Part shown: positions 6,767-63,045 of the stretch, piece by piece | Layout: the number at the start of each line of letters is the position of its first letter | Position numbering within the stretch: position 1 is the first letter of the stretch | NCBI RefSeq assembly: GCF_963675165.1 | Contig: NC_087377.1 | Span: 8,635,122-8,699,121, forward strand | Length of the DNA stretch: 64,000 bases | Direction: 5' to 3' | From: Halichondria panicea | Taxonomy: Eukaryota; Porifera; Demospongiae; Suberitida; Halichondriidae | Made by a program: the position numbers and the translations under genes | The notes under the pieces: model-generated | Database searches by the model: none | Seen by the model: the letters and a program-made list of their open reading frames with translations, nothing else | What the model was told of the DNA's origin: nothing

Positions 6767-9700
6767 TTATTCACTTTGAGTTTCACAAAACTGGCACACA
6801 AAACAGTCCATGTCCATAGTAGATGTATGACTCAGTGATGGATGTGCACATAATTGATGCAGCCATGCATCACAACGAGAGCATTGTACCCAATTGATAT
6901 CGTTTGTGTTAGTTTTGTCTTCTTTTTTAAAACAAGCTGCACAAAATAATGGCTCTTGTTTTAGAAGTTGAGTGGTGAGAGAATAAATTTGCTCAATGGT
7001 TGGCTTAGCTAACCCAGTTTCTGTTTTTCTTTTTTTTTTCGTTGAAAAAAATCTCAGCTGTGATTGTTGGTTGCTATTAGGTGCAATGACTCTCTTTCTG
7101 GTCAGATTTAACGCTTTGGTATTGCTTTCCATTTGGTTTACAGCATGAAGCATTGTCGATGCTGCATTTACTAGCTTGAGCGCAGCATGAAGGGCTTCAT
7201 TGTGTGAGATTTGGGTACTGCTGTGATGAATCTCTTGTAACTTAGCTTGCAGCTTTTGACGTATTTTGTCAGTCTCTGATGTAATTGGCTGCTTTACCAG
7301 TGTAGAGAAGTACATTTCATCAATGTCATCTTTTTCCATAGGGACAATCTTGCCGGAGTGGTTCCCAGTGTCTCCTAAGCAGATCATGTGTACATGTTTA
7401 CACACAGTGCAATGGATAGTGGCATCTAGACAGGTTCACGTGTACATGTGAAAGCAGGTATTGCAGGTTGAGCAACGTAAAGGGCATTCACATTGGCTTA
7501 GAACTTTAGTTACTATATACTGCGTGTCTTGTGAGCTCTGTGAGGGTACTTTCCATTGGTTAATGCTTAGTTGCGTCTCCTTAAATCCACTTGCTTGCAT
7601 TTGAATTGCTTTTTTATGCCTTTTGTTTATTTCACAGATCCTATGTGACTGTTTCCCTTTCTCCAACTTTCTGAACCGCTCGAATATCTTGTCTCTGGCT
7701 AGTTTAAGGAGGGTTGTAACCAGGTAATCAATCCGTCTATTTTGCTTGTGCTGAAGGTAAACAACTTTCAGAGTTCGATGAAAAGTCTCTAAGTGCATGT
7801 TGGTGTTCACTGTGGTGTGACACCTGTATGCATAAGCCCATTGATCTAAGCGAGTTGTATAGTGCATCTGAAAGTAAGAGAAGAACTTCTTTTGTTTTTG
7901 ACTAACTTCTGTAATGAAGTGTTGGAGGCATAAACGAAATTTTGATTTATCTAGCTCTGTAAGGAGTAAACGGAGCTGATGGTAAATTTCTATTTGATCA
8001 CTCCTATTGGGTACATACTCTTGGAGTGCATGACGCCAAGCTCTGTCTATATGCCATGTACAGAGTAGCTTTTTGGTTTGGTTGTCTCCAAATACAGCTC
8101 TCCATGCAGTAAAGAACTGTTCTGCGTCGTCGGACATAAACCATTGAGGAGAGATGTCCCCTGTTTTCTCTTTAACAGCCTTGAAAAATTCCACAAGAAT
8201 CAAAGAGTCTTGCCGGTTTGAAATCATCCATGCAACAGGTACTCCTTCATTGTACTCGTCCAGGACGAGTAAGGTTAACAAATTAAAGTCGTACATGTTT
8301 GTACCATGAGTAGTGTCGATACACATAGTTAAAGAACCAAACTGCCTCATCATGTCCCTTTGAAATTCAGTTTGAATTCCTATAATAAAATCGTTATCAC
8401 TAACATTGTCTATTTTATGACCTTGCTTTAGTCCTTGTTGCTTGAAGATTATTACTGGGTTGTGGGTTAGTGTTGACATTTCTAGTACCCATGCTGTTAA
8501 GCTAGTTAAGTCGTTGGCATGTCTCATAATGCCCTCAATGTTGTATTGATTCTTAATGTTATGCAGGTCTTGCTTCGTGACTAAGTGCTCTCTGTGTAGC
8601 TTACCAGGTACTGAGTCATAGATGTCGTCAAGAATGCGCTCTATTGGGGTACCCTGGTATAGTTTACCAGCCATCTCCATTCGCTTGGAAGTAGGTAAGC
8701 GTAAATGAGCAAGTTGGGTACTGTGGTCGTAATGAGTTGAACAATATTTTAATACCACTTTATTGGTTAATAGGTTTATCTCCGCTCTCATATGAGCAGT
8801 ACATTGTTCACCAATTTTGCTCGTACCTTGAGTCTTGGTTTGCCTTACACCTTTACTCATACATGTGTACACTCCTGCCCGATTGCAATAGTAGTAATAT
8901 ACCTGAGTGGTTTGATATGTCTTTGGAGCACAATGCTGAATAAAGGAAGATTTGTTGGCTAATTCTTCTGCCTCCTTCCATTCCAGAAATTCATCAAAAG
9001 TATGAAAATTGGCTTCGTTCACTTCCATGTTCATATTGTGGCTCAATTGTAAATGAGCTATAAGATCAGCGATTGTCTTCAATCTACACGAAGAACATGT
9101 AAGTATAGAATAATGTAAGTAGAATACGTTTTATTATATGTTTTATTCATACCTGAATGAACATTTACTGCACGTTATTGTGCCTTCACTGAGCTGAGCT
9201 CCTTGATGGCACCTATGAATGTGCTTAGAAACACTTGGTCTGTGGGCATAACTGTTCGGGCAATGTGGGCATAGGAAACTAGATTTTTTGTTTCTGCCAT
9301 TTGAGCTCACTGTGGTCTTCGTACGTATACACGTTTTACTGACATTTGCTCTACTTGTTAGGTCTGCTAGTGGCCGTTTCTTGAGTGTGGCCAATGAGTT
9401 GCTCGACAATACTGGAGCCAAAGACAATTGCCGGTGAGACGATTGTGATGTATGTGAGGTAGTCGTTGGTTTTGCCTGGTGAGTAGTATTATCCCCTTTA
9501 AGAATTTTGGCACAGTGAGAGACTGGTTTCGATGTTTGGATAGATGTAGAACTCGTAGATGGTAACACACTTACTCTAGGTTCATATGGTGATGCAACCT
9601 TACTATCCATGACCTGTTTTTGTTTTGTTGGGGAGGTATCTACCTTTTGAAAAGACGCGTCTGTGGTAATTATCCGACAGTGGAGTCTCTTAGCTCTATT

Positions 9701-17017: not shown

Positions 17018-18543
17018 TCACTGACATGCTTCAACATAAGCCCGAGTGATAATATACAAAGATATCCCAAGATCATCACAGGTTTCAAGAGGATCAACAG
17101 CATGTGCTAGCTCAATGTGCTGCTCTCTACTTATGCAATTCCTAGTCTCAGGAATAGTGACACGATCAAGATCATCAGACACAGTGACGGGACCTTCCCA
17201 GTCAATTCCAAAATATTCCTACAATAAATCACATTGTGATAACACTGAAGAAAACATTAATAACTAACACTCTAACACCCAAAACAATTACATTGTACTC
17301 TTACCAATGTATCACTTGCAACACCTTGTATAGCAGCAGCATCACCTGACCCTTGTAACAATCCTTTCGTCCACAACTGGTATGGAGTCTGATTCTTCTC
17401 AGTTCTTAAACGATGATGAGCATACGATTGGCGAAATTCATCCAAATGGCTGTTGATTCGGGGGATATATATGTAATGCAAGGAAAACAGGTCTGTATTG
17501 CACAGAGGGTCCAACAATCCATCTTCTTGTAAGGAGGAGAACACCTCGTAGTAGAGTGATATGCATCCTGTGAATAGGTCCCTCCACAACCTCTCAATTC
17601 GTTGATTGTGGACACTCCGTCCTGTAATAAAACTTTTACGTCCGGGCCCACGTTCTGGATGATCAAGCATAAACTGAGACACCAGCACATTTTCTCCTCC
17701 CTTGTCACTTCGGACTCTAGAGGGTAGACCATACTCATGAACTGCACTCAAAAAACTGTCTAAAACTGTCTCTGCCCTGTTGTTTGTGGAAGCTTTCATA
17801 TATACAGGGAGTCGGGAGTAGCCGTCAATGCCTCCATGTATGACAATACGCCATTTAATGAGCCTATGATAACCGTCTATGTGCCAGAGGCTGTTTGGCA
17901 TGCATACATTATATTTTCGCCGGTGGAGAACTTGCCGGAAGCGTGAAGCCACACCAATGGGATCAATTCTCTTCAGACTTTCCCTGACTCTTGCGCGCTG
18001 GATCCGAATACCTATACTCCACAAAAAGCCACTTAGTGATCGTTCTCCAGAATTAGGATGCGTCCTGATAAAATTTGTTGTAATATCATCAAGCTCAGAA
18101 TCGCTCAACCCTGAGAATGTTATCTCATCTTGCATTCCGTATTGAACTATTCTTCTCCTTATTGTACGAGATGAAACGCCTAACATTTTCCCAATGGCTG
18201 TAGTTGAAAAATGAGCTTTTAGCAGCAAAATAAGGCTTTCTTCACTAATTGGTATTTGTGGTCGTCCCCTAATGTGACAACGGTGTTCATCATCAATCAC
18301 CTCATTAATACACACAACTATGTTTCTCACATGTTCAACTAATATTTCTCCACATCCAAAAGGTAACAAATCTTCAGCACTCAGAATATCTCCAAGGACC
18401 ATCTCAGCAGTACAAAGTGCATCTTCGACAACAGTTAAATCACCTTCAAGTATCATCATGTTTGTTCTCGTAATAGTATCTTCAGCCTCAAGCAAGAAGT
18501 CAATCATCTCAGAAGCTGACATTCTAAGGAAAGAAATCGCCAT
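17018..18543 (-). CDS. IS3EU-like integrase-core (DDE) transposase, 479 aa
   Basis: Exon 1 (18,543-17,305) and exon 2 (17,218-17,018) join in phase 0 (DTL|EYF). Met at 18,543 begins a helical leader. A helix-turn-helix follows (ISEESLILLLKAHFSTTAIG, VSSRTIRRRI). The rve/DDE core has Asp in WHIDGYHRLI, Asp in RVRSDKGGEN and Glu in NQRIERLWRDL. The exon 2 part (EYFGIDWEGPVTV...) is a small C-terminal domain. It would catalyse strand transfer of the 5997/20,010 ends. The frame has no stops, so it could be functional. Cellular genes of this kind are often annotated only as integrase core domain proteins. Confidence 0.82.
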
Positions 18544-18596
18544 GTGAGGAAAATGGTACCTAACAGTGAGGGTGTGTCTTTATAGACTTATTTGTG

Positions 18597-22071: not shown

Positions 22072-25000
22072 TCAGGAAGAGAATGCTGAAGTTTTTTTTA
22101 ACTTGTGCTCTAAGTCAGGAGATATCAAGCAATCAGCCAACGCTTTAATATCATTTCCAATGTCAACTGGATTATCTTCACAAACCTCTTGAACCAACAT
22201 TGTTGTAGTACACTCATTTGACTTGTGGCAATATTCGTCCTCACTGTCATCTGAGTCTCCAAAGATATCTGATTCTGTCACAGTGGGAATATCATCCCAC
22301 CGTTGATTCTCCTTCAGTAGCTCAATCATACCCAGTGCTTCAACTTTCTCTCTTGCTTTTATCTTGGATCTGACTATAGCCTCGGCTATGTCAGAATCAG
22401 TGATTTCACTCAACAACGAGGTGCGAGAGAGAGAGTTTGTACCACTTTTTGCTTCATGCTTTTTTTTGTGGAAAGATGATGTTGGTCTCTGAGGATTCTG
22501 CTTGAAGTTTTGACTGAATTTGTAACCGATGTACACGTCTTAACAAACCCAACATCCCAAAGTTGATAACAGTTGAAAACATGCTATTCATACTTCGTGC
22601 TGCTCTAAATAAACCTTCACATGGTTGAGATCCTAGCATCCATGGCAAAAACGAATCAGGGTGCTGCTTGAGCTCATTTCGAATCGTATAAAGAAGGGTT
22701 ACAAGAGAATGTGCGTTAAGTTCAATACACATGTAGGCATTGAATGTTATGAAGTTATCTTGGAGATTGTACCGTGGATGTAGCTTTATCCACTCACGCC
22801 AGTAACGTATAAAAAAAGTAGGATACCATATCTTCTCAATTCTTTCAGTGGGACTCAATTCCTTACTTAGGTAGCTGTCGACAACACACTGCATCAATTC
22901 CACGTATTGTTTTGTAGCTTTGGAATCAGGAAGGCTTTCTAACAGATGAGCTGCTTTGACAATGTTAATAACGGCATCAAAGTTCTGTTTATCCTTGTGG
23001 TCAACGTCTTTTTCCCGTAAACCATGAATGTCTTTCCCATAAGTGGCCATAAGTATTCGTATATGGTGTACACCAGCAACACAACTACCCATTGGTAGTA
23101 TAACCGATGGCTTAAGAAGTCTGCACTTTAATTTCACTCCAATGTGGACAATATCTTGGACGTAGGCTATTGAGCTAGGCCTTTGTAAGCAAAACCATGG
23201 GTGCCATTTGGATGGAACTTTCGGAGCAGCTAATATGGGCTTAGGAATTAGGTCCAACAATACATTACATTTTGAATCCTTTAGACCTGCACACACCTGC
23301 ATTGCAGTCAATAGTCGGGTGTCCCCGTCTGAGCCAAAACTTAGAACCTTTAAACCCCTTTTTTGACACTCTTGTACTATGTACTTCCACCGTAACATGA
23401 TGTGCTCAGTGGTAAACTTGTTATCAGTTCCAAAACATGCTAAGCAGAATGGTGGAATGTTCACAGATAACGGTTTAGCCATGTATACATATGCATACCT
23501 AGCCATCTGATTTTCAGAAAACACCCTCTCTATAGCCTCAAATGAAACAGCCAAGAACGTGTCTGATTTGGGAAGACCATATCTATCCAGTGGAAGAACA
23601 AAACCAACGCATCTATCTGTTTTGCTGTCATACTCCACCCGGGATATTACTCTAGTTGCATCTTCTCCTATGGACACAATGTTAGGTCCATTATGTTTAG
23701 CAATATGTTCAACTAGCTCATCAAATCGGAACTCTCCTTCACTTATGGTTTTGTAGTCCGAGTGGACAAGCCGCTGTACAGTTCTCAGGGATGGTAATGC
23801 TTGTGATAAGTTTTGTTGTAAAAAATCATAAGCTAGAGGCCCAGCATAAATAAACAGTGATGTGGCAAATTTCTTTAGCTTGTCAGAATGCCTTCGCCCA
23901 TGTGGTAACTTGCTGGCATTTTTTTCAGCATTTGACATCAACTGTCTAAGAATTGGAGTACAAGAGCTTAAGAGTAAGTCAGGTGACATTTCACATTCGT
24001 TACTTCTGAGTAAGTGTTGTAACTTTTTGTTTTCGGTGGTGAGTTGATCAATTTCATTGGTAATCGAGAAAAAGTCAATTATCTTAGTTTGATCTGGACA
24101 TTTTTGTACAGTCTCTAATTTTCTCTTGTGCCTACCATAACGGGAATAATCTAAGACAGTTATTTGTGCAGTGGCCCCTCCCTTATTTTCTGCCATTATC
24201 GTACAGGAGAGAGGGGCCTCTTCAAAATTCTGAGCTTTGATGTCTTCAGGTAGCACTGTCGATTGCTGCTTGTTGAGAGGGTAGGCAAAACGTTCAGGTG
24301 TTTGCTCGTTGAGAGGGTAGGCAGGTGGTTGCTCCTTGAGAGGGTAGGCAGACCGTTCAGGTGTTGGCTCGTTGAGAGGGTAGGCAAAACGTTCAGGTGG
24401 TTGCTCCTTTTCAGGTGGTTGCTCGTTGAGAGGGTAGGCAGAACGTTCAGGTGGTTGCTCGTCATTGAGAGTGATGGCAGAACGTTCAGGTGTTTGCTCG
24501 TTGAGAGAGTAGGCAGAAAGTTCAGGTGTTTGCTCGTTGAGAGGGTAGGCAGAATGTTCAGGTGTTTGCTCATTGAGAGAGTAGGCAGAATGTTCAGGTG
24601 TTTGCTCGTTGAGAGGGTAGGCAGAATGTTCAGGTGTTTGCTCGTTGAGAGGGTAGGCAGAATGTTCAGGTGTTTGCTCGTTGAGAGAGTAGGCAGAATG
24701 TTCAGGTGTTTGCTCGTTGAGAGAGTAGGCAGAACGTTCAGGTGGTTGCTCGTTGAGAGTGATGGCAGAACGTTTAGGTGGCGTGTGCTTCCTGAAAGAG
24801 GTAGAATGTTCTGAGTCTGTGTCTGATGACTGAGCAGTGGACACTGACGTTGTAGAAGGAGATAAAAACGCTGCCAAAGTACTCTGAGTGCCTCCTCCAT
24901 TCATGAGTATTTTGCACTTGGTAACGTGCCTAGTCCAATTAGATATTGAATATGTCGTCGTATGTATTCTACTGGGCTGCAGGTGAATTCTTGTTTGACA

Positions 25001-25576
25001 TGCAATGCACGTCACACATACTGATATGCAATGGCTCTTTGATAGGTTGGTCACCAATACTGAGAAGTGAGTGTTTTCTCTCAAACGTTTCACATGCTTT
25101 ATTGATTGATTCTTCCTTACCCAGGCAGAAATACTGCGTCTCACTTTCTTTGTAATAAAAGCAGTTGATTCAAACTCTGTGTCACTATCCGTACTATGCA
25201 TTCTGTTTGGCATTTTGTTTGGCTTGGATCTATTCTTTATTTTATCCTCAGGCTTATGAACAACTCCACACGATGCTACTTTTATCCTCTTTCTAACATC
25301 AATGACAAAGTTCATTATCCTTATTCTGTGGCCAGGAGGAAAAATAAATGACTCAACAGGTGAGCTTGGTACATGGCTGGGGGTATGATATTCTTTCTGA
25401 TTGGATTTGATAAACTTCTCTATCGTTTCTATAGAATTTCCAGGATTATCACTGATGTCCATAGTAGAAATCACATCAGCAATATCATATCCCGAGGCAA
25501 GCAGGCAGTTGACAACGTACTCTGGAAGGACTGACCGCATGAGAGAGATCACATCGAAACTGCTCCCTGTTGCCAT
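22072..25576 (-). CDS. Large putative DDE transposase with 11-residue repeats
   Basis: One open frame from Met 25,576 to 22,454 (1040 aa). An overlapping frame from about 22,500 to 22,072 continues it after a shift at a run of eight A's near 22,465 (minus strand). N-terminus: MATGSSFDVISLMRSV. A possible Cys/His finger follows (CVTCIACQ ... HVTKC). About residues 265-425 are a tandem repeat of the type LNEQTPEHSAY. The C-terminal ~600 residues hold conserved-looking blocks IVSIGEDATRVISRVEYDS, KVLSFGSDGDTRLLTAMQ, CLACFGTDNKFTTEHIMLRW and LGSQPCEGLFRAARSMNS. The Asp of GED, the Asp of SDGD and the Glu of CEGLFR are candidate catalytic residues (inference). It is the only plausible transposase for the 20,075/26,106 ends. 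I do not recognise the superfamily. Confidence 0.65.
24263..24790 (-). repeat. 33-bp coding minisatellite
   Basis: About 14 tandem units of 33 bp (core TTGCTCGTTGAGAGGGTAGG on plus), encoding LNEQTPEHSAY-type repeats in the transposase. Some units are shortened (PPEKEQPPER, KEQPPAYP), the pattern expected from slippage or unequal exchange that kept the frame. Confidence 0.9.
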
Positions 25577-26116
25577 TACCTATAATTACATAAAGCAATT
25601 CATATGTAACTTGCTAGAGGGGTATACGTTTACAGGTCTAAGTTTTACATACCTTATAGCTTTACAGCAGATTCCGAGCAGATTCCGAGGTGATATTGGA
25701 AGGAGGGACTGATTGCTAGTTTCAGATTCTGAGATGTACACATAATATAATAATGATAGACATAAAAATTATGACTATTATCCTATAGTACCTTCACTCA
25801 AGTTCTGTTCACTGTGCATGTGAAGAAACTCGCAGGCTATTCACCAGCCTGTGCAGTACCAGGTACTAGGTGCAGTACAGTGCAGTCTAGCTAGTTGTTA
25901 CTGGCACAAGCATGCGCTAAAATGACTCTAAGTAACATTGAGATTACAATAAGATTACGGAAAATGAGGTCAAAGCCGGAATGACAAAGGTTGGGATTTC
26001 AGAGATTTCAGAGATTTCAAGATTTCGGGATTTCATGAGATTTCATGAGATTTCAAAAGATTTCAAAAGTAGGTGTACAAGATTTCACCCAGTGTCGGAC
26101 CCCTCGGTCTAGTCAG

Positions 26117-56182: not shown

Positions 56183-59100
56183 CTAAACATGTAATAGTTT
56201 GCTACAAAAGACACAAGAGTCTCCAAGCAACAATTGGCAAATAGTTCCATACTTCAGCTTAGTAGAACTAGTACCAGTTGCTTTGGTTACCGAGTAGTCA
56301 GAAGGAAGGGAGACGGCCACTAACGACGTATGTACTTCCTTCTTGAACGCTTCGGTATCATCATTCATCTCATAGCATTTCTCGACACTCAGTTCGCTGT
56401 TGTACTTATCAGATCCAAGCACTTCTACTATACTGTTTTTAGACCAATCAATTAGTTTCGAGAAAATATTGGAATTTCTTGACTTGTCCGAGGCATATTG
56501 GGAAACCAACATTTTGAGACGTTTGTTTTCTTTCTTGAAACGCATGAAAGACAGGTCAATTTTGGATTTAGACTCGTCACTCCATGCAAGGAAATTTTTC
56601 GCAAGTTTTTCTAGAGATCGAGTGATAATCACGTTCGAGTCCATATAAAAACCACCCCAATTGTACAGTACTAGAGCACGGGTGATAAACTTATCCAAAT
56701 TGTCATCTAAGAAATCAATTTGGTGAGGTTCAAGCGAGAATATTCTGCTAAATAGCTTATCACGATTGTATTTTGTCACTGTTATCTGGTAGCCAGCTTC
56801 TCTGAAGACATCGAAACGGCCATTATCGAGTGTGTTACTATGAACAAGAACGTTGGCACACGGATGGTAACGGAATACAGATTCGATGGAACGATGATCC
56901 TGCCAAGTAAATTTGAAATCGGGAGATGGGAAGTGAAAGTGAAACTGCAAGCAATCCTTACAAGGAGTTGGAGGGGACAATGGAATTAAACCAAACTTGC
57001 GGGCAGCATCAAACAGAGAAGGTCTTTGACGAATCTCGTACCAAACCGTTGCTCGAAGACGCATCATTGTCGCCACATCGGGATTAGGTGGTGGGTCGTC
57101 CCAGGGAAACTTGGCAAACCATTTGGGTGCTTCATCTATCGTAGTGTTGAACATATCCAAGGTGTGAAACATTGTTGTCAGGCCAACAGTACGAGAGGAG
57201 CTGCCTTTTTTAGAACCACCACCCCCAGGCATTTTCTCCGAGTTGATAAAAATCACCGGAGTCCCCATACCAACGCAGGGTAGAGCACTGTGGATTCGTT
57301 GTGTGATAACCAGTTTAGCTCTTGAATAACGTTCAATTAAATTGAAGGCTTCAATAAATAGATCTTGTCTGATTATACGGCCCACCAATGTATGCTTCAC
57401 ACGGATTCCCCTGTCTCTGATTTTTTTCGGAAGCATTTGAAAATACTCCTCCTTCACATCAACAATAAAAATCTCATTAGTTTTCTCAGATTTCACTTGA
57501 AGCATTAAAGTCATACAACCTGAGAAGTACGCAGGTACATGCAGATCCGTTAACATTTTAAGAGTTACAGTGTCTCGGCAACCGATCGGTGCCCTTTCCA
57601 TCGTATAAGCAACATTTTCCCTCCACTGTGGTGCCATTGGTGGGGAGATATGAATTGAGACCATTAGAGGGTGGACATTGGATGGGGGTGGCCAGCTAGC
57701 ACTACTATCTCCCCACCAAGCGTTGAGGAAAACCGTAACGGCTTGATCTTTTTTTGTTGTTGCAATTATATTATCTCGATCGAGAAAAGTATCCATAAAC
57801 GGAAGGAATTGCAGACCGGGAAAGTCTTGAATTTCATCACCAACATTCGCGCCACCTTCTTTTTTCACTCTCGCATCAAAAGAAAGAGTCCCGTAATGCT
57901 GATTCCATGGTTCGTCCGGTTCCAGTGATAGGAAACGGTACATGAAAATAGTGGTGGCTATAACCAGATCTTCAGCTTTGAAGTACTTACCTACAGTTTG
58001 AGCATCGAATGAAATCGAAGTCACTGAATCATACTTTTTAGAGGGTTTATAGTATTCGTTGTTGAGCACGGTTGCGAGTTGGTTGATGTACGCGTATTGC
58101 TTTGGAAAGCATGCCAGTTTGAAATGTTCTACAGTAGTCTTCGTATTGTTCAGTCCTATCCACGGTTTCGTACAACTGGGAATAGGGACGTTTTGTTTGT
58201 CTTGTAGTTGAACGTTTGGTTCAATGTACACTCCTCCGTACTTCCATAGAATGCCAAGTCCCACAACTACTTGCAGGTGTTCTTCAAACGATGCTTTGGC
58301 TAAAACTTTGTAAAACAAGTGTTTCGAAAACCATTCTTCGAAAGGAGTTTCTTGAACAAGTTCACCAATTAAAAGAAACTCGGCGGAAATCTTTTTGTTT
58401 GAGAGATCTGCAATGGATTTCATACAGTGTGAAGTACCACAATACACAAGAACAGGATTCCGTTTTGTCAGACTGTTCAAATTTGATAAAATTTTGTGCG
58501 AGAACGGCCGATCATATACCCAAGCAGAGCGTATTAAATTAGCGACAGCAGGGGGACTCTCAGCAAGAGGAGAAATATTGTTCTCAGAAACAACGCTTGC
58601 AAGATTTGTTGTTGTGATAGTCGAGCCAGTTGAAACAGGTCCTTGTATAAAGAAAATTGACCCCAAACCGACAGCAGCCAGCACCAAGAGTAACTGTGGT
58701 GGAGAAAACTTATCACCTCTTAAGTTTCGGTAGATATAGATGTAGAGACCGATGAGTACAGCACCTAATCCGATAATCATTTTCCAGGAGATAGGAAGTT
58801 GAAAGTACGCTAGATTGGCAGCGATGACAATACCACGTTTCAGGAGATTCAAGATGGCGTGTGTTAGTGGAGTGAAACGTTGTAGAACGTAGATTGAGGC
58901 TAAGTTGTAGGTGCAGTGAAAAGAACTTGAAATCACACCTTGGTGTAAGTTTTTCAAGAGAGCAACATATTGGAAGAAAGCCATTTTTGAGATAATAAAT
59001 GGGGTTAAAATAAACACACTGTTTAGCGAAAGAACGGCATACTTCTGAAAAGCACTGTCCCAAACCTTGCCCAATCTCTTCAGATAAATGTTTCTGATCG

Positions 59101-59632
59101 GGAAAGCGACGTTCGAACAAAGAGCAGCTAAAAGTCCAACCACGAGAAAAGTCGAGTCAAAAGCCACAAACAAACTAGCTCCAACCACCATGATGATGAT
59201 CGCCAAAAGTGTTGTGGAATTGAGCACTGTGTAGTCTCGATAGAGTACCAGAGACAGGCCGAACATGAACAGAGGCTCGCATGCTTTTACGACTTGCGTC
59301 ATGCTAGAGCTGACCATTGCATAGGCTGCATTCGTCGCCAAGTTCCCGGCAACATTGCCAATCGAAGCTATGAGTATCGTTTTTTTAGAAGCATCTGCAG
59401 GCCATATAGAATTTCTAGAGATAAGCTTTATCCACATAACGGAGACAATAGCACCAATCAGATGTTGTAAAAATGTCAATTCGAGCCATCGAAAATCTTT
59501 ACTTGCATCAGACCAAGAGTTCTTGTCGGGTTTGCTTTGCCCTCTCATAAAGTTCTTCGAAGAGATGGCCGTGATACTGTTGGCAGCCCACCACATTCCA
59601 ACCGATATAGCAATAAGAAGATTCGCCTTCAT
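56183..59632 (-). CDS. Transporter-glycosyltransferase-pyruvyltransferase fusion, 1149 aa, single exon
   Basis: One uninterrupted frame. Met at 59,632 (MKANLLIAISVGMWWAANSI) is preferred because an acceptor-like TATATACAG lies just before it; the open frame runs 33 codons further. Residues about 1-305 are a TPT/SLC35-type transporter with about nine to ten spans (TNAAYAMVSSSMTQVVKACE, GLYIYIYRNLRGDKF). A further span lies at 313-330. About 365-600 is a GT32/DXD-type glycosyltransferase region (GLGILWKYGGVYIEPNVQL, 458-476). About 630-880 is a polysaccharide pyruvyl transferase (AWWGDSSASWPPPSN, MERAPIGCRDTVT, AYFSGCMTLML, VITQRIHSALPCVGMGTPVI). About 900-1110 is a second GT32-like region (LVLYNWGGFYMDSNVIITRS, 988-1005). 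The likely role is import of a sugar donor into the Golgi and modification of a glycan, with the catalytic parts in the lumen (inference). Both DXD motifs lack the second Asp (EPN, DSN). An intronless gene is odd among these intron-rich neighbours; horizontal transfer or retro-origin is possible. Confidence 0.8.
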   Translation of the reverse strand: MKANLLIAISVGMWWAANSITAISSKNFMRGQSKPDKNSWSDASKDFRWLELTFLQHLIGAIVSVMWIKLISRNSIWPADASKKTILIASIGNVAGNLATNAAYAMVSSSMTQVVKACEPLFMFGLSLVLYRDYTVLNSTTLLAIIIMVVGASLFVAFDSTFLVVGLLAALCSNVAFPIRNIYLKRLGKVWDSAFQKYAVLSLNSVFILTPFIISKMAFFQYVALLKNLHQGVISSSFHCTYNLASIYVLQRFTPLTHAILNLLKRGIVIAANLAYFQLPISWKMIIGLGAVLIGLYIYIYRNLRGDKFSPPQLLLVLAAVGLGSIFFIQGPVSTGSTITTTNLASVVSENNISPLAESPPAVANLIRSAWVYDRPFSHKILSNLNSLTKRNPVLVYCGTSHCMKSIADLSNKKISAEFLLIGELVQETPFEEWFSKHLFYKVLAKASFEEHLQVVVGLGILWKYGGVYIEPNVQLQDKQNVPIPSCTKPWIGLNNTKTTVEHFKLACFPKQYAYINQLATVLNNEYYKPSKKYDSVTSISFDAQTVGKYFKAEDLVIATTIFMYRFLSLEPDEPWNQHYGTLSFDARVKKEGGANVGDEIQDFPGLQFLPFMDTFLDRDNIIATTKKDQAVTVFLNAWWGDSSASWPPPSNVHPLMVSIHISPPMAPQWRENVAYTMERAPIGCRDTVTLKMLTDLHVPAYFSGCMTLMLQVKSEKTNEIFIVDVKEEYFQMLPKKIRDRGIRVKHTLVGRIIRQDLFIEAFNLIERYSRAKLVITQRIHSALPCVGMGTPVIFINSEKMPGGGGSKKGSSSRTVGLTTMFHTLDMFNTTIDEAPKWFAKFPWDDPPPNPDVATMMRLRATVWYEIRQRPSLFDAARKFGLIPLSPPTPCKDCLQFHFHFPSPDFKFTWQDHRSIESVFRYHPCANVLVHSNTLDNGRFDVFREAGYQITVTKYNRDKLFSRIFSLEPHQIDFLDDNLDKFITRALVLYNWGGFYMDSNVIITRSLEKLAKNFLAWSDESKSKIDLSFMRFKKENKRLKMLVSQYASDKSRNSNIFSKLIDWSKNSIVEVLGSDKYNSELSVEKCYEMNDDTEAFKKEVHTSLVAVSLPSDYSVTKATGTSSTKLKYGTICQLLLGDSCVFCSKLLHV

Positions 59633-59931
59633 ATCCGAGACCTGTATATAATGTACGTATAATATGTGTATGTGTAAATTAATTGATCTTGGTCCAATAT
59701 CCTGTATACTTAATGTACAGTTAGAGGCCAAAATAAAGTTTCTGTTCCATTAAGCATGCAATGACGACATGGTACCCTATTATAAACGTGTATATACAAA
59801 TTTTAGCGAATTTGTAATTAACTATAATAATATAAAAAAGTCTGAATCTCATTAAAAAAAAAAATTTTTTCTTCTTTTTTTCTAATGTACTTTTGTATAA
59901 TGCAATGTACTTTTTTGAGAGTCTAAGCAAG

Positions 59932-60718: not shown

Positions 60719-63045
60719 TTTTTAAAAATTATAATGTGGAAGGACAGTTAGAAAAAATAAACGTGTACGTATTTAGAGTTCTAAAGATTTGTGAGACTTT
60801 GGGTATATATACATGTATAGTCTATTCGCACTCGAACCGTGTCTCCGCTTGGATCAGGTCCATTGGAGACTGGCGAATGTCTCTTCTGCGGGTGGAACGA
60901 GAACCACGAACACAACGTATGGCTGATCTTGCCAATGAAAAGGCCAGACTGCATCTCATCCAGCCTACCACCTGACTGTAGCTTTCGTTTCTTTACGTGG
61001 CTAGGTCTCCAACCAGTCTCTTCACTACAACTGAGGCGGCCTCCTTGCCCATGCCTCCACATGCCGAGAAAACTAGAGGTGTGAACGAGCCATGCTCAAT
61101 TTCATTTATCCTTTCTCTTTTTTTCTCTCTCTCCATTTTCTGAAAAAGCGACTTGAGGGTTTGGACCTATAGCTTCTCGCGTGGGGGTAGAATACCCTTG
61201 TGTCAAAAAATGTGTTTCTGCCTTGGGTCCAAAAGCCTCTCACTCTGATGTCTGCTCTGGCTGTTTGATAGCGGAGGGACTCGCCTGTCAAAGGTTGTAA
61301 CTTGGGCTCAGTCTCAACGTCGTTATGTATTTCCTTCATGCAGGATGCTAGGAAGTTTGTTGTGTCGTCATGGCGCATGTGTATGAAGCCAGATAATTTG
61401 CAGATCTGGGAATGGTCTACCGTATAACTTTCACCACATGGGCAAGTTGTTGGTAGATTTTCCAGTGGCCAACAATAGCGAAGGTTGATGTGGTCATGAA
61501 AATCTGCTTTGGCATCAAAGAAAAATCCGTGCTCTGCAACAGGTATTGTATTAAGTGTGCTTGAGCCACCTTTCTCACGTGCTAGGGCCATAGCGCGTTG
61601 TTGGGGTTCTGGTAGGCGTCTCTGTAGATCATGCATCTGCCTTTATTTTGTACAATACGTCGTGACGTTGTCGCACGGCCATCTTTTGATTGAGGTCCTG
61701 GTCAATGCTCGTCATGACATCTGTCCCGTTGTCAGTAATCAGCTGGGTGAGTTTTGCTGTGCATTCAATTGAGTCAGCGTGTTTGCTCCTTGAATCCTTA
61801 ACAGGATCGTTGAACGACATACCTCCCAGCCGTGTAGGCAGTGTCATCAGCTCCAGCTCTGTGTCATTTAGTTCATGTTTCACTATTTTTGGTATTAGTT
61901 TGTGATCAATAGCGTCCTTCAGTGGTTGCATGTGGTCCCCCGCGGTAGGCATGGTTCTTTGAATAAATGTCCATCGATGCTGTAGTCCAAACACGAAACC
62001 AGTGTATGCAGCATGGGGTTGGGTGGAGGCAATGTCAGCAAGCCGAGACCCTGTTCCACCCAAGCGGTAACTTTTCCCTCTAAGTATGTGGCAACAAATG
62101 CTGGGGACCCAATCGCTGCACCCAGGTGACGCTGTCCTGACTTATTTGCTAAATCTTCTCCATCCTCAGACATCTGGATGCCTGTGCCTTCGAATTCTTT
62201 AACTGCTGCTGCTCGGCATTCACGTTTTTGATGGTTTTGGGCAGTACCCATACGCGGGTCCTTGTTGCAGTAGGATGTCCCAGTAGTTGCGTAAAATCTT
62301 CAGGTTCCCCCCAGCTGCGGCGTCATCGGCATACCATATTTGAACTGCACTGGGAGAATCATCCGTGGATAGCACACTCCTGCATTTGTCTATTAAAGAT
62401 ACAGTGCTTAGTGCATACATCGCCATGGACAGGGGACATCCCCTGGGTGGTACCTTCTTCTGAGGACAGTTCCATTCCTCCTGAGACAAATAGTCTGGAC
62501 GGCGACCGGTAGAAATTTAAGAGGACTGTTGCCAGAGGTGGGCATGTGTATCGGATGTTATGGAGGGCCACTGCACGATTCAGACAATTAAATGCATTAT
62601 CTGCGTCAACCAACAAAACGGCGTCTGTGCCTGCTGAAGCGAATACCTTTCTCAATGCATGTATATAGCAGCTTCACAACCAGACGGGTGGCCTGCACAT
62701 ACTTGCATAGATCCTGCAGCTTTGGTAATAATCTCTCTTGAGCACAGACACCAGGGACTTGCCAATAATACGTCTCAGGTCGTACTCCGGCCAGGGTTCT
62801 TCGAAAGGGGGATCAAACGATTGTTTAGAAGTGGGCTAAGCCCGACTGGGTCCACTTCCTGTGATGCTATGTGCCTTGCCACCGTCCGCCACCGCATCAC
62901 ATACAAATCTTTTGATGCTGACTTAAAAGATACCATCATACGTCTCCATATATAAGCATCTCCCATGGAGGGACCCGCGGCACCGTGGGTTGCTAGTGCA
63001 GTCTTCCTTACAACCTCAACAGTTAGACTTTCGAATAAGAATGGG
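60719..63045 (-). mobile_element. Retroelement insertion, 2.3 kb, 7-bp TSD
   Basis: It splits a MITE of the 45,630 family: left part to 60,718 (GTTATAGCAGATAATT), right part from 63,046 (GATAATTCTAATTAAAG). An unsplit relative at about 47,170 shows the uninterrupted junction AGCAGATAATTCTAATTAAA. GATAATT is present at both edges (60,712-60,718 and 63,046-63,052). On the minus strand the 3' edge is A-rich (ATTTTTAAAAAAA), as expected for target-primed insertion. It contains the broken reverse transcriptase below. Confidence 0.7.
61106..62966 (-). pseudogene. Reverse transcriptase, truncated and frame-shifted
   Basis: Pieces in several frames follow the RT order on the minus strand: SSKDLYVMRWRTVARHIASQ (62,930), RLIPLSKNPG, a gap, [20 protein letters not shown] (motif A; about 62,600), TTQG then [15 protein letters not shown] (motif B; shift near 62,440), the active-site IWYADDAAAGG (about 62,325), a thumb-like LGAAIGSPAFVATYLEGKVT, AAYTGFVFGLQHRWTFIQRT, LPTRLGGMSFNDP, a Cys motif PTTCPCGES, and a tail RVRGFWTQGRNTFFDTRVF. 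No endonuclease or integrase is visible. The type is common in marine invertebrates, but I cannot assign its clade. It is inactive because of at least four frame breaks. Confidence 0.8.

What the first reader, a model, noticed from the sequence alone, without database searches (positions are those of the whole stretch)
56183..59632. Four-part intronless fusion: sugar transporter + GT + polysaccharide pyruvyl transferase + GT
One 1149-codon frame carries a TPT/SLC35-like transporter, a DXD-type transferase, a pyruvyl-transferase block (PIGCRDTVT, FSGCMTL, QRIHSALP) and a second DXD-type region. A transporter tethered to the enzymes that use its cargo would channel substrate in the Golgi lumen. 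Pyruvylated glycans are rare in animals, and a single-exon gene stands out among multi-exon neighbours. Horizontal acquisition from an alga or other protist is a real alternative.
Basis: partly seen in the sequence, partly recalled or inferred. Interest (0 to 1): 0.88.

Follow-up and report, generated by a model that had tools for sequence, protein, structure and literature searches.

The report
Sponge transporter-pyruvyltransferase fusion enzyme
A breadcrumb-sponge gene joins, in one protein, a phosphate-type membrane transporter to an enzyme of the kind that puts pyruvate on sugars, which makes it a strong candidate for the maker of the pyruvate-bearing sugars found on sponge cell-adhesion molecules.

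Summary
The 1149-codon frame is real and intact. The genome is the sponge Halichondria panicea: contig C5 has exactly the length of the contig of its RefSeq gene LOC135335898. That gene, a paralogue 92% identical, is uninterrupted in the genome. Three copies (C1, two on C5) are the only PF04230 hits found. Relatives include Xenia and Hydractinia; 59 of 68 aligned homologues span over 85% of it.

Best reading: a Golgi pyruvylation machine whose transporter imports phosphoenolpyruvate (exporting phosphate) for the attached pyruvyltransferase, fusing what S. pombe keeps as Pet1p/Pet2p and Pvg1p. The likely product is pyruvylated galactose of adhesion glycans (glyconectins). Cargo, acceptor, topology and activity are inferred, not shown. 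Contamination or a recent algal transfer is very unlikely.

The parts
56183..59632 (-). Whole coding sequence, 1149 codons plus stop, one exon
   Evidence: RefSeq paralogue colinear with the genome in one piece
58697..59632 (-). Residues 1-312: ten-helix TPT/DMT transporter
59285..59287 (-). K116, equivalent of the first phosphate-binding lysine of TPT (Arabidopsis Lys203)
   Evidence: Aligned to 5y78 (numbering checked); K in 57 of 60
58835..58840 (-). K265-R266, equivalent of the phosphate-binding Lys-Arg pair of TPT (Arabidopsis Lys359/Arg360)
   Evidence: Aligned to 5y78; K 49 of 60, R 44 of 60
58649..58696 (-). Residues 313-328: eleventh helix, type-II-like anchor that would place the rest in the lumen
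   Evidence: Helix in the model; hydrophobic stretch in 59 of 60 proteins, net positive charge before it in 51 of 60
58544..58645 (-). Residues 330-363: flexible stem
   Evidence: pLDDT under 50
57917..58543 (-). Residues 364-572: GT-A domain 1 without DXD (E-P-N), probably not catalytic
56993..57910 (-). Residues 575-880: polysaccharide pyruvyltransferase domain
57575..57577 (-). R686 in PIGCRD, proposed equivalent of Pvg1p R217 / CsaB R148 (PEP)
   Evidence: R in 54 of 60; assignment by motif, not by residue alignment
57290..57298 (-). R779-I-H781, equivalent of Pvg1p R337/H339 and CsaB R306/H308 (PEP)
   Evidence: Profile alignment to 5ax7; R 56 and H 59 of 60
56186..56962 (-). Residues 891-1149: GT-A domain 2, GT32 / alpha-1,4-glycosyltransferase-like, D-S-N in place of DXD
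59642..59643 (-). AG of a possible 5' UTR splice acceptor shared by the three copies
   Evidence: Flank comparison by eye, sequence; not tested with transcripts

Best explanation
The gene encodes a self-contained glycan-pyruvylation machine of the secretory pathway. The N-terminal ten-helix antiporter carries phosphoenolpyruvate (PEP) from cytosol to Golgi lumen and phosphate back. An eleventh helix then places the C-terminal 780 or so residues in the lumen, where the Pvg1p-like domain transfers pyruvate from PEP onto a terminal sugar, most likely galactose, as a 4,6-ketal; the phosphate it releases is what the antiporter needs in exchange. The two GT-A domains flank it and most likely hold or select the glycan acceptor; the first has lost its metal-binding motif, and the second may be weakly active or inactive in this species. 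The main product in H. panicea is proposed to be pyruvylated units of its adhesion proteoglycan, glyconectin 2. Shown here: domain order, predicted folds, conserved substrate-site residues, conservation in sponge and cnidarians, no other PF04230 hit in the genome search. Inferred: topology, PEP as cargo, catalytic activity, acceptor and biological role.
Against: No activity, localisation or expression data. The carrier pocket is mixed: F177 stands where Arabidopsis TPT has Phe262, thought to keep PEP out, though diatom TPT2 proteins keep that Phe, have Gln and Asn for His184 and Tyr338, and the one tested carried PEP; here His184 is N97 but the Tyr is kept. The Lys-Arg pair is not PEP-specific: the genome's SLC35E1-like gene has it too. 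TIGR00817 score 84.2 is far under that model's cut-off of 317.9. A search for free-standing carriers gave 12 proteins, none named, so no relative of known cargo was found. Foldseek TM-score to Pvg1p is only 0.44 at 12% identity. Nine of 60 lack part of the pyruvyltransferase triad. Net charge after the eleventh helix is zero or negative in only 25 of 60. The genome search reads exon by exon and its counts are lower bounds. The glyconectin link rests on review passages; the primary papers were not held.
Confidence: 0.6

Rival explanations
1. One reading: the transporter brings a sugar or nucleotide sugar, and the two GT domains are the main enzymes, with the pyruvyltransferase domain as an accessory.
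Against: Nearest by sequence and fold is a phosphate-type translocator; K116+K265+R266 all kept in 42 of 60; GT-A 1 has DXD in 0 of 60 and the window's GT-A 2 has DSN; the GT-A domains are the least conserved.
Confidence: 0.15
2. A pyruvyltransferase fused to a transporter of the right fold that no longer transports, or carries another phosphate ester (triose phosphate, sugar phosphate), so that the membrane part is mainly an anchor.
For: F177 at the position thought to exclude PEP; Lys-Arg altered in some relatives (R266 in 44 of 60); the SLC35E1-like gene shares the pair.
Against: dN/dS is lowest in the transporter in all three comparisons (0.18, 0.18, 0.08) and pocket residues are kept in most proteins (K116 57, Y242 56 of 60).
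Confidence: 0.17
3. The PF04230 domain is a GT-B-fold transferase with another donor or reaction, and no pyruvate is transferred.
For: A 2019 review knew activity data for only three pyruvyltransferases; identity to Pvg1p is about 12%, TM-score 0.44.
Against: Pvg1p is the top structure by both programs and the RxH motif aligns; a phosphate-type carrier in the same chain would be a coincidence.
Confidence: 0.06
4. Contamination, assembly chimera or recent horizontal gene from an alga, protist or bacterium.
For: The six free-standing pyruvyltransferases with organism names are all from marine Flavobacteriia (Aquimarina, Cellulophaga) at 31-33% identity.
Against: 18.1-Mb and 7.6-Mb contigs, three copies, RefSeq gene; same protein layout in Xenia and Hydractinia and in many unnamed assemblies; fusion rows and 88 free-standing rows on opposite sides of a well-supported branch.
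Confidence: 0.02

Closest known systems
Pvg1p, S. pombe Golgi galactose pyruvyltransferase (PDB 5AX7)
   Same: PF04230-type fold, RxH motif, expected luminal type-II-like placement
   Different: Free-standing with its own single anchor; about 12% identity; not fused to a transporter or GT-A domains
Pet1p/Pet2p, S. pombe Golgi PEP transporters
   Same: Proposed role: supply PEP to a luminal pyruvyltransferase
Triose-phosphate/phosphate translocator of plastids (PDB 5Y78)
   Same: TPT fold, Lys/Lys/Arg phosphate site, 26% identity
   Different: Plastid envelope; the pocket His is Asn here; no enzyme attached
CsaB of Paenibacillus alvei
   Same: Ketal pyruvyltransferase with R148, R306, H308 at PEP; equivalents proposed here
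   Different: Bacterial, lipid-linked ManNAc-GlcNAc acceptor, secondary cell wall polymer
GT32 / alpha-1,4-glycosyltransferases (PF04488, PF04572; the GT32 label is recalled)
   Same: Second GT-A domain and its relatives match these profiles
   Different: DXD missing in the window protein; first copy lacks it in all 60 proteins

Membership tests
PF04230 ketal pyruvyltransferases (Pvg1p/CsaB type) | Profile match above curated cut-off | tested here: met
   41.3 bits against 25.3
PF04230 ketal pyruvyltransferases (Pvg1p/CsaB type) | Pvg1p-like GT-B fold | tested here: met
PF04230 ketal pyruvyltransferases (Pvg1p/CsaB type) | RxH PEP-binding motif (R337/H339) | tested here: met
   R779-I-H781 aligned to RLH of 5ax7, E 0.0083
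PF04230 ketal pyruvyltransferases (Pvg1p/CsaB type) | PEP-binding R217 equivalent | tested here: inconclusive
   R686 by motif only; alignments to 5ax7 did not reach it
PF04230 ketal pyruvyltransferases (Pvg1p/CsaB type) | PEP-dependent pyruvyl transfer to a saccharide | not testable with these tools
   Needs enzyme assay
TPT / phosphate translocators (PF03151) | Profile and fold | tested here: met
TPT / phosphate translocators (PF03151) | Phosphate-binding Lys/Lys/Arg | tested here: met
   K116, K265, R266 aligned with 5y78; all three in 42 of 60
Plastid-type pPT subfamily (TIGR00817) | Score above curated cut-off | tested here: not met
   84.2 bits against 317.9
PEP transporter | Pocket that admits PEP | tested here: inconclusive
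   His184 equivalent is Asn, Phe262 equivalent is still Phe
Pet1p/Pet2p orthologue | Closer to Pet1p/Pet2p than to other SLC35-type proteins | not tested
GT32-like transferase, domain 2 | PF04488 match | tested here: met
   35.4 bits against 23
GT32-like transferase, domain 2 | DXD motif | tested here: not met
   D-S-N in the window protein; DXD in 30 of 60 proteins
GT32-like transferase, domain 1 | DXD motif | tested here: not met

The most novel reading that the evidence does not exclude
A donor-channelling enzyme in which the membrane antiporter and the transferase run on one stoichiometric cycle (one PEP in, one pyruvate transferred, one phosphate out) in a single chain, and which makes the pyruvylated self-recognition epitope of sponge glyconectins; the family's local gene copies, with the pyruvyltransferase domain changing fastest between paralogues, tune the species-specific glycan code. 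It would be an animal glycan pyruvyltransferase, of which I saw none in print, and a fused carrier-transferase, present also in cnidarians.
Probability: 0.35. Interest if true: 0.93.

Novelty: new variant of a known kind. Interest (0 to 1): 0.84.

Why it matters
A pyruvylated trisaccharide of a sponge adhesion proteoglycan was described in 1993 (reference seen), and an antibody to it blocks cell adhesion. A 2019 review says the genetic determinants of most pyruvylated glycoconjugates are unknown, and the listings of my searches (1, 10, 2, 5 and 0 papers) showed no animal pyruvyltransferase. This gene gives a testable candidate in a species whose glyconectin 2 has been purified, plus a relative in the hydroid Hydractinia. 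The fusion also offers a natural test of whether tying a Golgi carrier to the enzyme that uses its cargo speeds or focuses glycan modification.

Tried and rejected
Processed retrocopy: considered because the long blastn match between C1 and C5 copies stops at the coding region; not adopted, because by eye the bases just upstream share stretches, among them 'tatacag|gtctcggat'. It is not excluded. Contamination and recent algal transfer: rejected. Lys-Arg as a PEP signature: weakened by the control that the genome's SLC35E1-like exon has it too. P0070, first taken for a eukaryotic fusion of PF04230 with a galactosyltransferase, has a C-terminal part that looks radical-SAM-like by eye and was dropped; it is the one of 69 hits left out of alignment A2. 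Free-standing carriers: the transporter profile gave 12 proteins among the 8000 candidates scored, none named, so no tree of the carrier was made. Viral relatives: the two patterns from A4 matched nothing in viral contigs. R217 by residue alignment: not reached even with 49 sequences. Organism naming by 18S: unanswered, replaced by contig-length identity. Fold lists rank only Foldseek's own candidates; families not listed are not excluded.

Counts on 60 proteins are the rows of alignment A2 (69 rows, the window protein included) that cover over 85% of the window protein; nine shorter rows were left out. The tree used 18 of the 60 fusion rows and 106 of the 120 listed proteins (206 found).

Recalled, from no call: the abstract of Guerardel 2004 as I remember it (eight pyruvylated oligosaccharides in glyconectin 2 of H. 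panicea); Galdieria TPT residue numbers, which one single offset (89) fits to the printed 5y78 chain indices, with four of the five spacings equal to those of the Arabidopsis numbers (indices; the fifth, Tyr to Lys, is 23 against 21); that TPT-family carriers work as phosphate antiporters and that Golgi members have both ends in the cytosol; the GT32 label.
Full report
What the frame is. window:56183-59632 on the minus strand reads as 1149 residues from ATG to stop. Pfam gives TPT at 7-299, PS_pyruv_trans at 660-798 and Gly_transf_sug at 914-1011, each above its cut-off; the region between transporter and pyruvyltransferase has no Pfam hit in this protein. The window lies at G000:C1:8635122-8699121 of a 131-Mb, 39-contig genome, and PF04230 is found at three places: this one and two on contig C5, in open frames of 1187-1205 residues. 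The search reads exon by exon and calls its counts lower bounds.

Which organism. The best protein match, 92% identical over the full length, is 'uncharacterized protein LOC135335898 isoform X2 [Halichondria panicea]' on a contig of 7597148 bases, exactly the length of C5. That protein matches the C5 copy in L004 over 1163 of 1163 residues without a break, the other C5 copy at 97.6% and the window copy at 92.3% from residue 9 on. So this is the breadcrumb sponge, and the coding part is one exon. Upstream of the ATG the three copies keep 'tatacag|gtctcggat', which may be the acceptor of an intron in the 5' UTR; transcripts were not available.

A conserved family. The search over the whole length returned 69 proteins, from 7989 candidates scored. 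By my count of the listed precomputed domains, 60 of the 69 carry both PF03151 and PF04230. Of the 68 aligned with the window protein, 59 cover more than 85% of it. Only three bear an organism name: Halichondria panicea, the octocoral Xenia sp. (33% identity) and the hydroid Hydractinia symbiolongicarpus (31%). The rest are unnamed, mostly from ENA.

Origin. In a quick tree of 124 pyruvyltransferase sequences (18 of the 60 fusion rows, 106 of the 120 listed hits) all 18 fusion rows fall, with 18 other rows, on one side of a branch with support 99; the other 88 rows are on the other side. The label 'fusion' is not a single clade in that tree: it needs 7 changes, at least 4 of them forced by starred branches, because those 18 other rows lie among and beside the fusion rows. 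At least two of them, P0084 and P0088, run on past the pyruvyltransferase into sequence like GT-A domain 2 and so look like truncated models of the same fusion; I did not check each one. The six hits with organism names among the 120 listed are Aquimarina and Cellulophaga (31-33% identity). In one search, 80 of 96 bacterial and archaeal loci are shown, led by Flavobacteriia, with Enterobacterales, Rhizobiales and others, at 27-42% identity. The fusion is therefore old within animals or passed early between them; its first source is not settled.

Active sites. A profile of the domain aligns 'vitqriha' with 'VITDRLHA' of Pvg1p, E 0.0083, which sets R779 and H781 against R337 and H339. Docking and mutation of Pvg1p and CsaB tie these residues and R217/R148 to PEP (PMC4872226 and PMC10435577, passages). 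R686 in PIGCRD is my motif-based choice for R217. Over 60 full-length proteins: R686 54, R779 56, H781 59, all three 51. For the transporter, the six pocket positions of Arabidopsis TPT listed in PMC6981301 (passages) map through the 5y78 alignments (numbering check) to N97, K116, F177, Y242, K265 and R266. The phosphate-binding Lys, Lys, Arg and the Tyr are kept; His is Asn (48 of 60; His in 7); the Phe thought to keep PEP out is still Phe (58 of 60). The same paper reports that diatom TPT2 proteins keep that Phe with His and Tyr changed, and that the one tested carried PEP in liposomes. So the pocket is compatible with PEP but does not prove it. As a control, the genome's SLC35E1-like gene also has the Lys-Arg pair, and the TIGR00817 score is far under its cut-off.

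The glycosyltransferase regions. They are diverged copies of each other (hhalign probability 97.7). The first has DXD in 0 of 60 proteins; the second in 30 of 60, with D-x-N in 12, the window protein among these. Fifteen proteins keep the pyruvyltransferase triad while the second GT-A lacks its first Asp, and 8 show a broken triad with DXD intact, consistent with separate losses in different copies. The transporter and pyruvyltransferase are the best conserved parts. I read the GT-A domains in this protein as acceptor-holding or weakly active.

Topology. A hydrophobic stretch after the tenth helix is found in 59 of 60 proteins, with net positive charge before it in 51 of 60; after it the net charge is zero or negative in only 25 of 60. 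Three sequons follow at 352, 495 and 829 (one lies before, at 138), and C398 and C403 are kept in 60 of 60. With both ends of a ten-helix carrier in the cytosol (recalled), the eleventh helix would send the rest into the lumen. This is inference.

How it would work. In S. pombe, Pvg1p in the Golgi relies on Pet1p and Pet2p to bring PEP into the lumen. Here one chain holds a phosphate-type carrier and a Pvg1p-like enzyme. The enzyme would use one PEP and release one phosphate; a TPT-type carrier swaps one for the other (recalled), so the fused pair would keep itself supplied and clear its own product.

What it may make. H. panicea is the source of glyconectin GN 2; in GN 1 of Microciona prolifera the antibody Block 1, which binds Gal4,6(R)Pyr-beta1-4-GlcNAc-beta1-3-Fuc, blocks adhesion (PMC7828597, passages). 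A review states that pyruvate occurs on glyconectins of some sponges, citing Guerardel 2004 (PMC6994554, passages); that paper was not held, and that its pyruvylated units include those of glyconectin 2 is my recall. Another review lists Aplysia, S. pombe, red and green algae and Microciona as the eukaryotic cases (PMC6801904, passages). Since the fusion genes are the only PF04230 hits found in the genome, they are the natural candidates.

Against this reading. There are no activity, localisation or expression data; the carrier pocket is mixed and no free-standing carrier of known cargo was found near it; nine of 60 proteins lack part of the triad; Pvg1p identity is only about 12%. The role of the product in adhesion is itself debated: AFM found calcium-dependent self-binding for the sulphated disaccharide but not for the pyruvylated trisaccharide, though under conditions the review calls non-physiological.

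Evolution of the copies. C1 against a C5 copy: dS 0.105, dN 0.035; by domain dN/dS is 0.18 transporter, 0.30 GT-A 1, 0.48 pyruvyltransferase, 0.28 GT-A 2. Between the two C5 copies the synonymous and non-synonymous differences are 11 and 3 in the transporter, 5 and 6 in GT-A 1, 3 and 15 in the pyruvyltransferase, 2 and 2 in GT-A 2: small counts, but notable in a domain whose catalytic residues are kept.

In print. Searches for pyruvyltransferase with sponge (5 papers), with Golgi and PEP transporter (10 papers), for pyruvylated with sponge and aggregation factor (1 paper), with panicea and glyconectin (2 papers) and a combined search (none) showed no report of this gene or of an animal pyruvyltransferase in their listings; of the papers listed I read passages of PMC4872226, PMC10435577, PMC6801904, PMC6994554, PMC7828597 and PMC9546453. 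Searches returned large unspecific lists of which I saw only the first 12 and 10. The library holds open-licence papers only.

Noticed in passing
L004 and L005 (contig C5): Two more copies of the fusion gene about 11 kb apart. Between them the pyruvyltransferase domain has 3 synonymous and 15 non-synonymous differences, against 11 and 3 in the transporter, 5 and 6 in GT-A 1 and 2 and 2 in GT-A 2.
   Followed up: partly
   Followed up: no
P0098, P0100, P0101: Sister sequences of the fusion side of the tree; P0098 starts by eye with what looks like the end of a GT-A domain 1 before its pyruvyltransferase, so GT-A 1 plus pyruvyltransferase may predate the join with the carrier.
   Followed up: partly
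window 7436-9130 (-), 17272-18579 (-), 22454-25579 (-): Long frames with MULE transposase, integrase core (rva_4) and P-element-like transposase domains; the third holds an internal repeat rich in PLNEQTPEHSAY.
   Followed up: partly
window 61106-62251 (-): Adjoining frames that look by eye like the end of a retroelement reverse transcriptase; the two stretches scanned had no Pfam hit.
   Followed up: no
G000:C4:3339794-3342032 (L010-L012): Exons of an SLC35E1-like gene (named by eye) with the same Lys-Arg pair as the fusion's carrier.
   Followed up: partly
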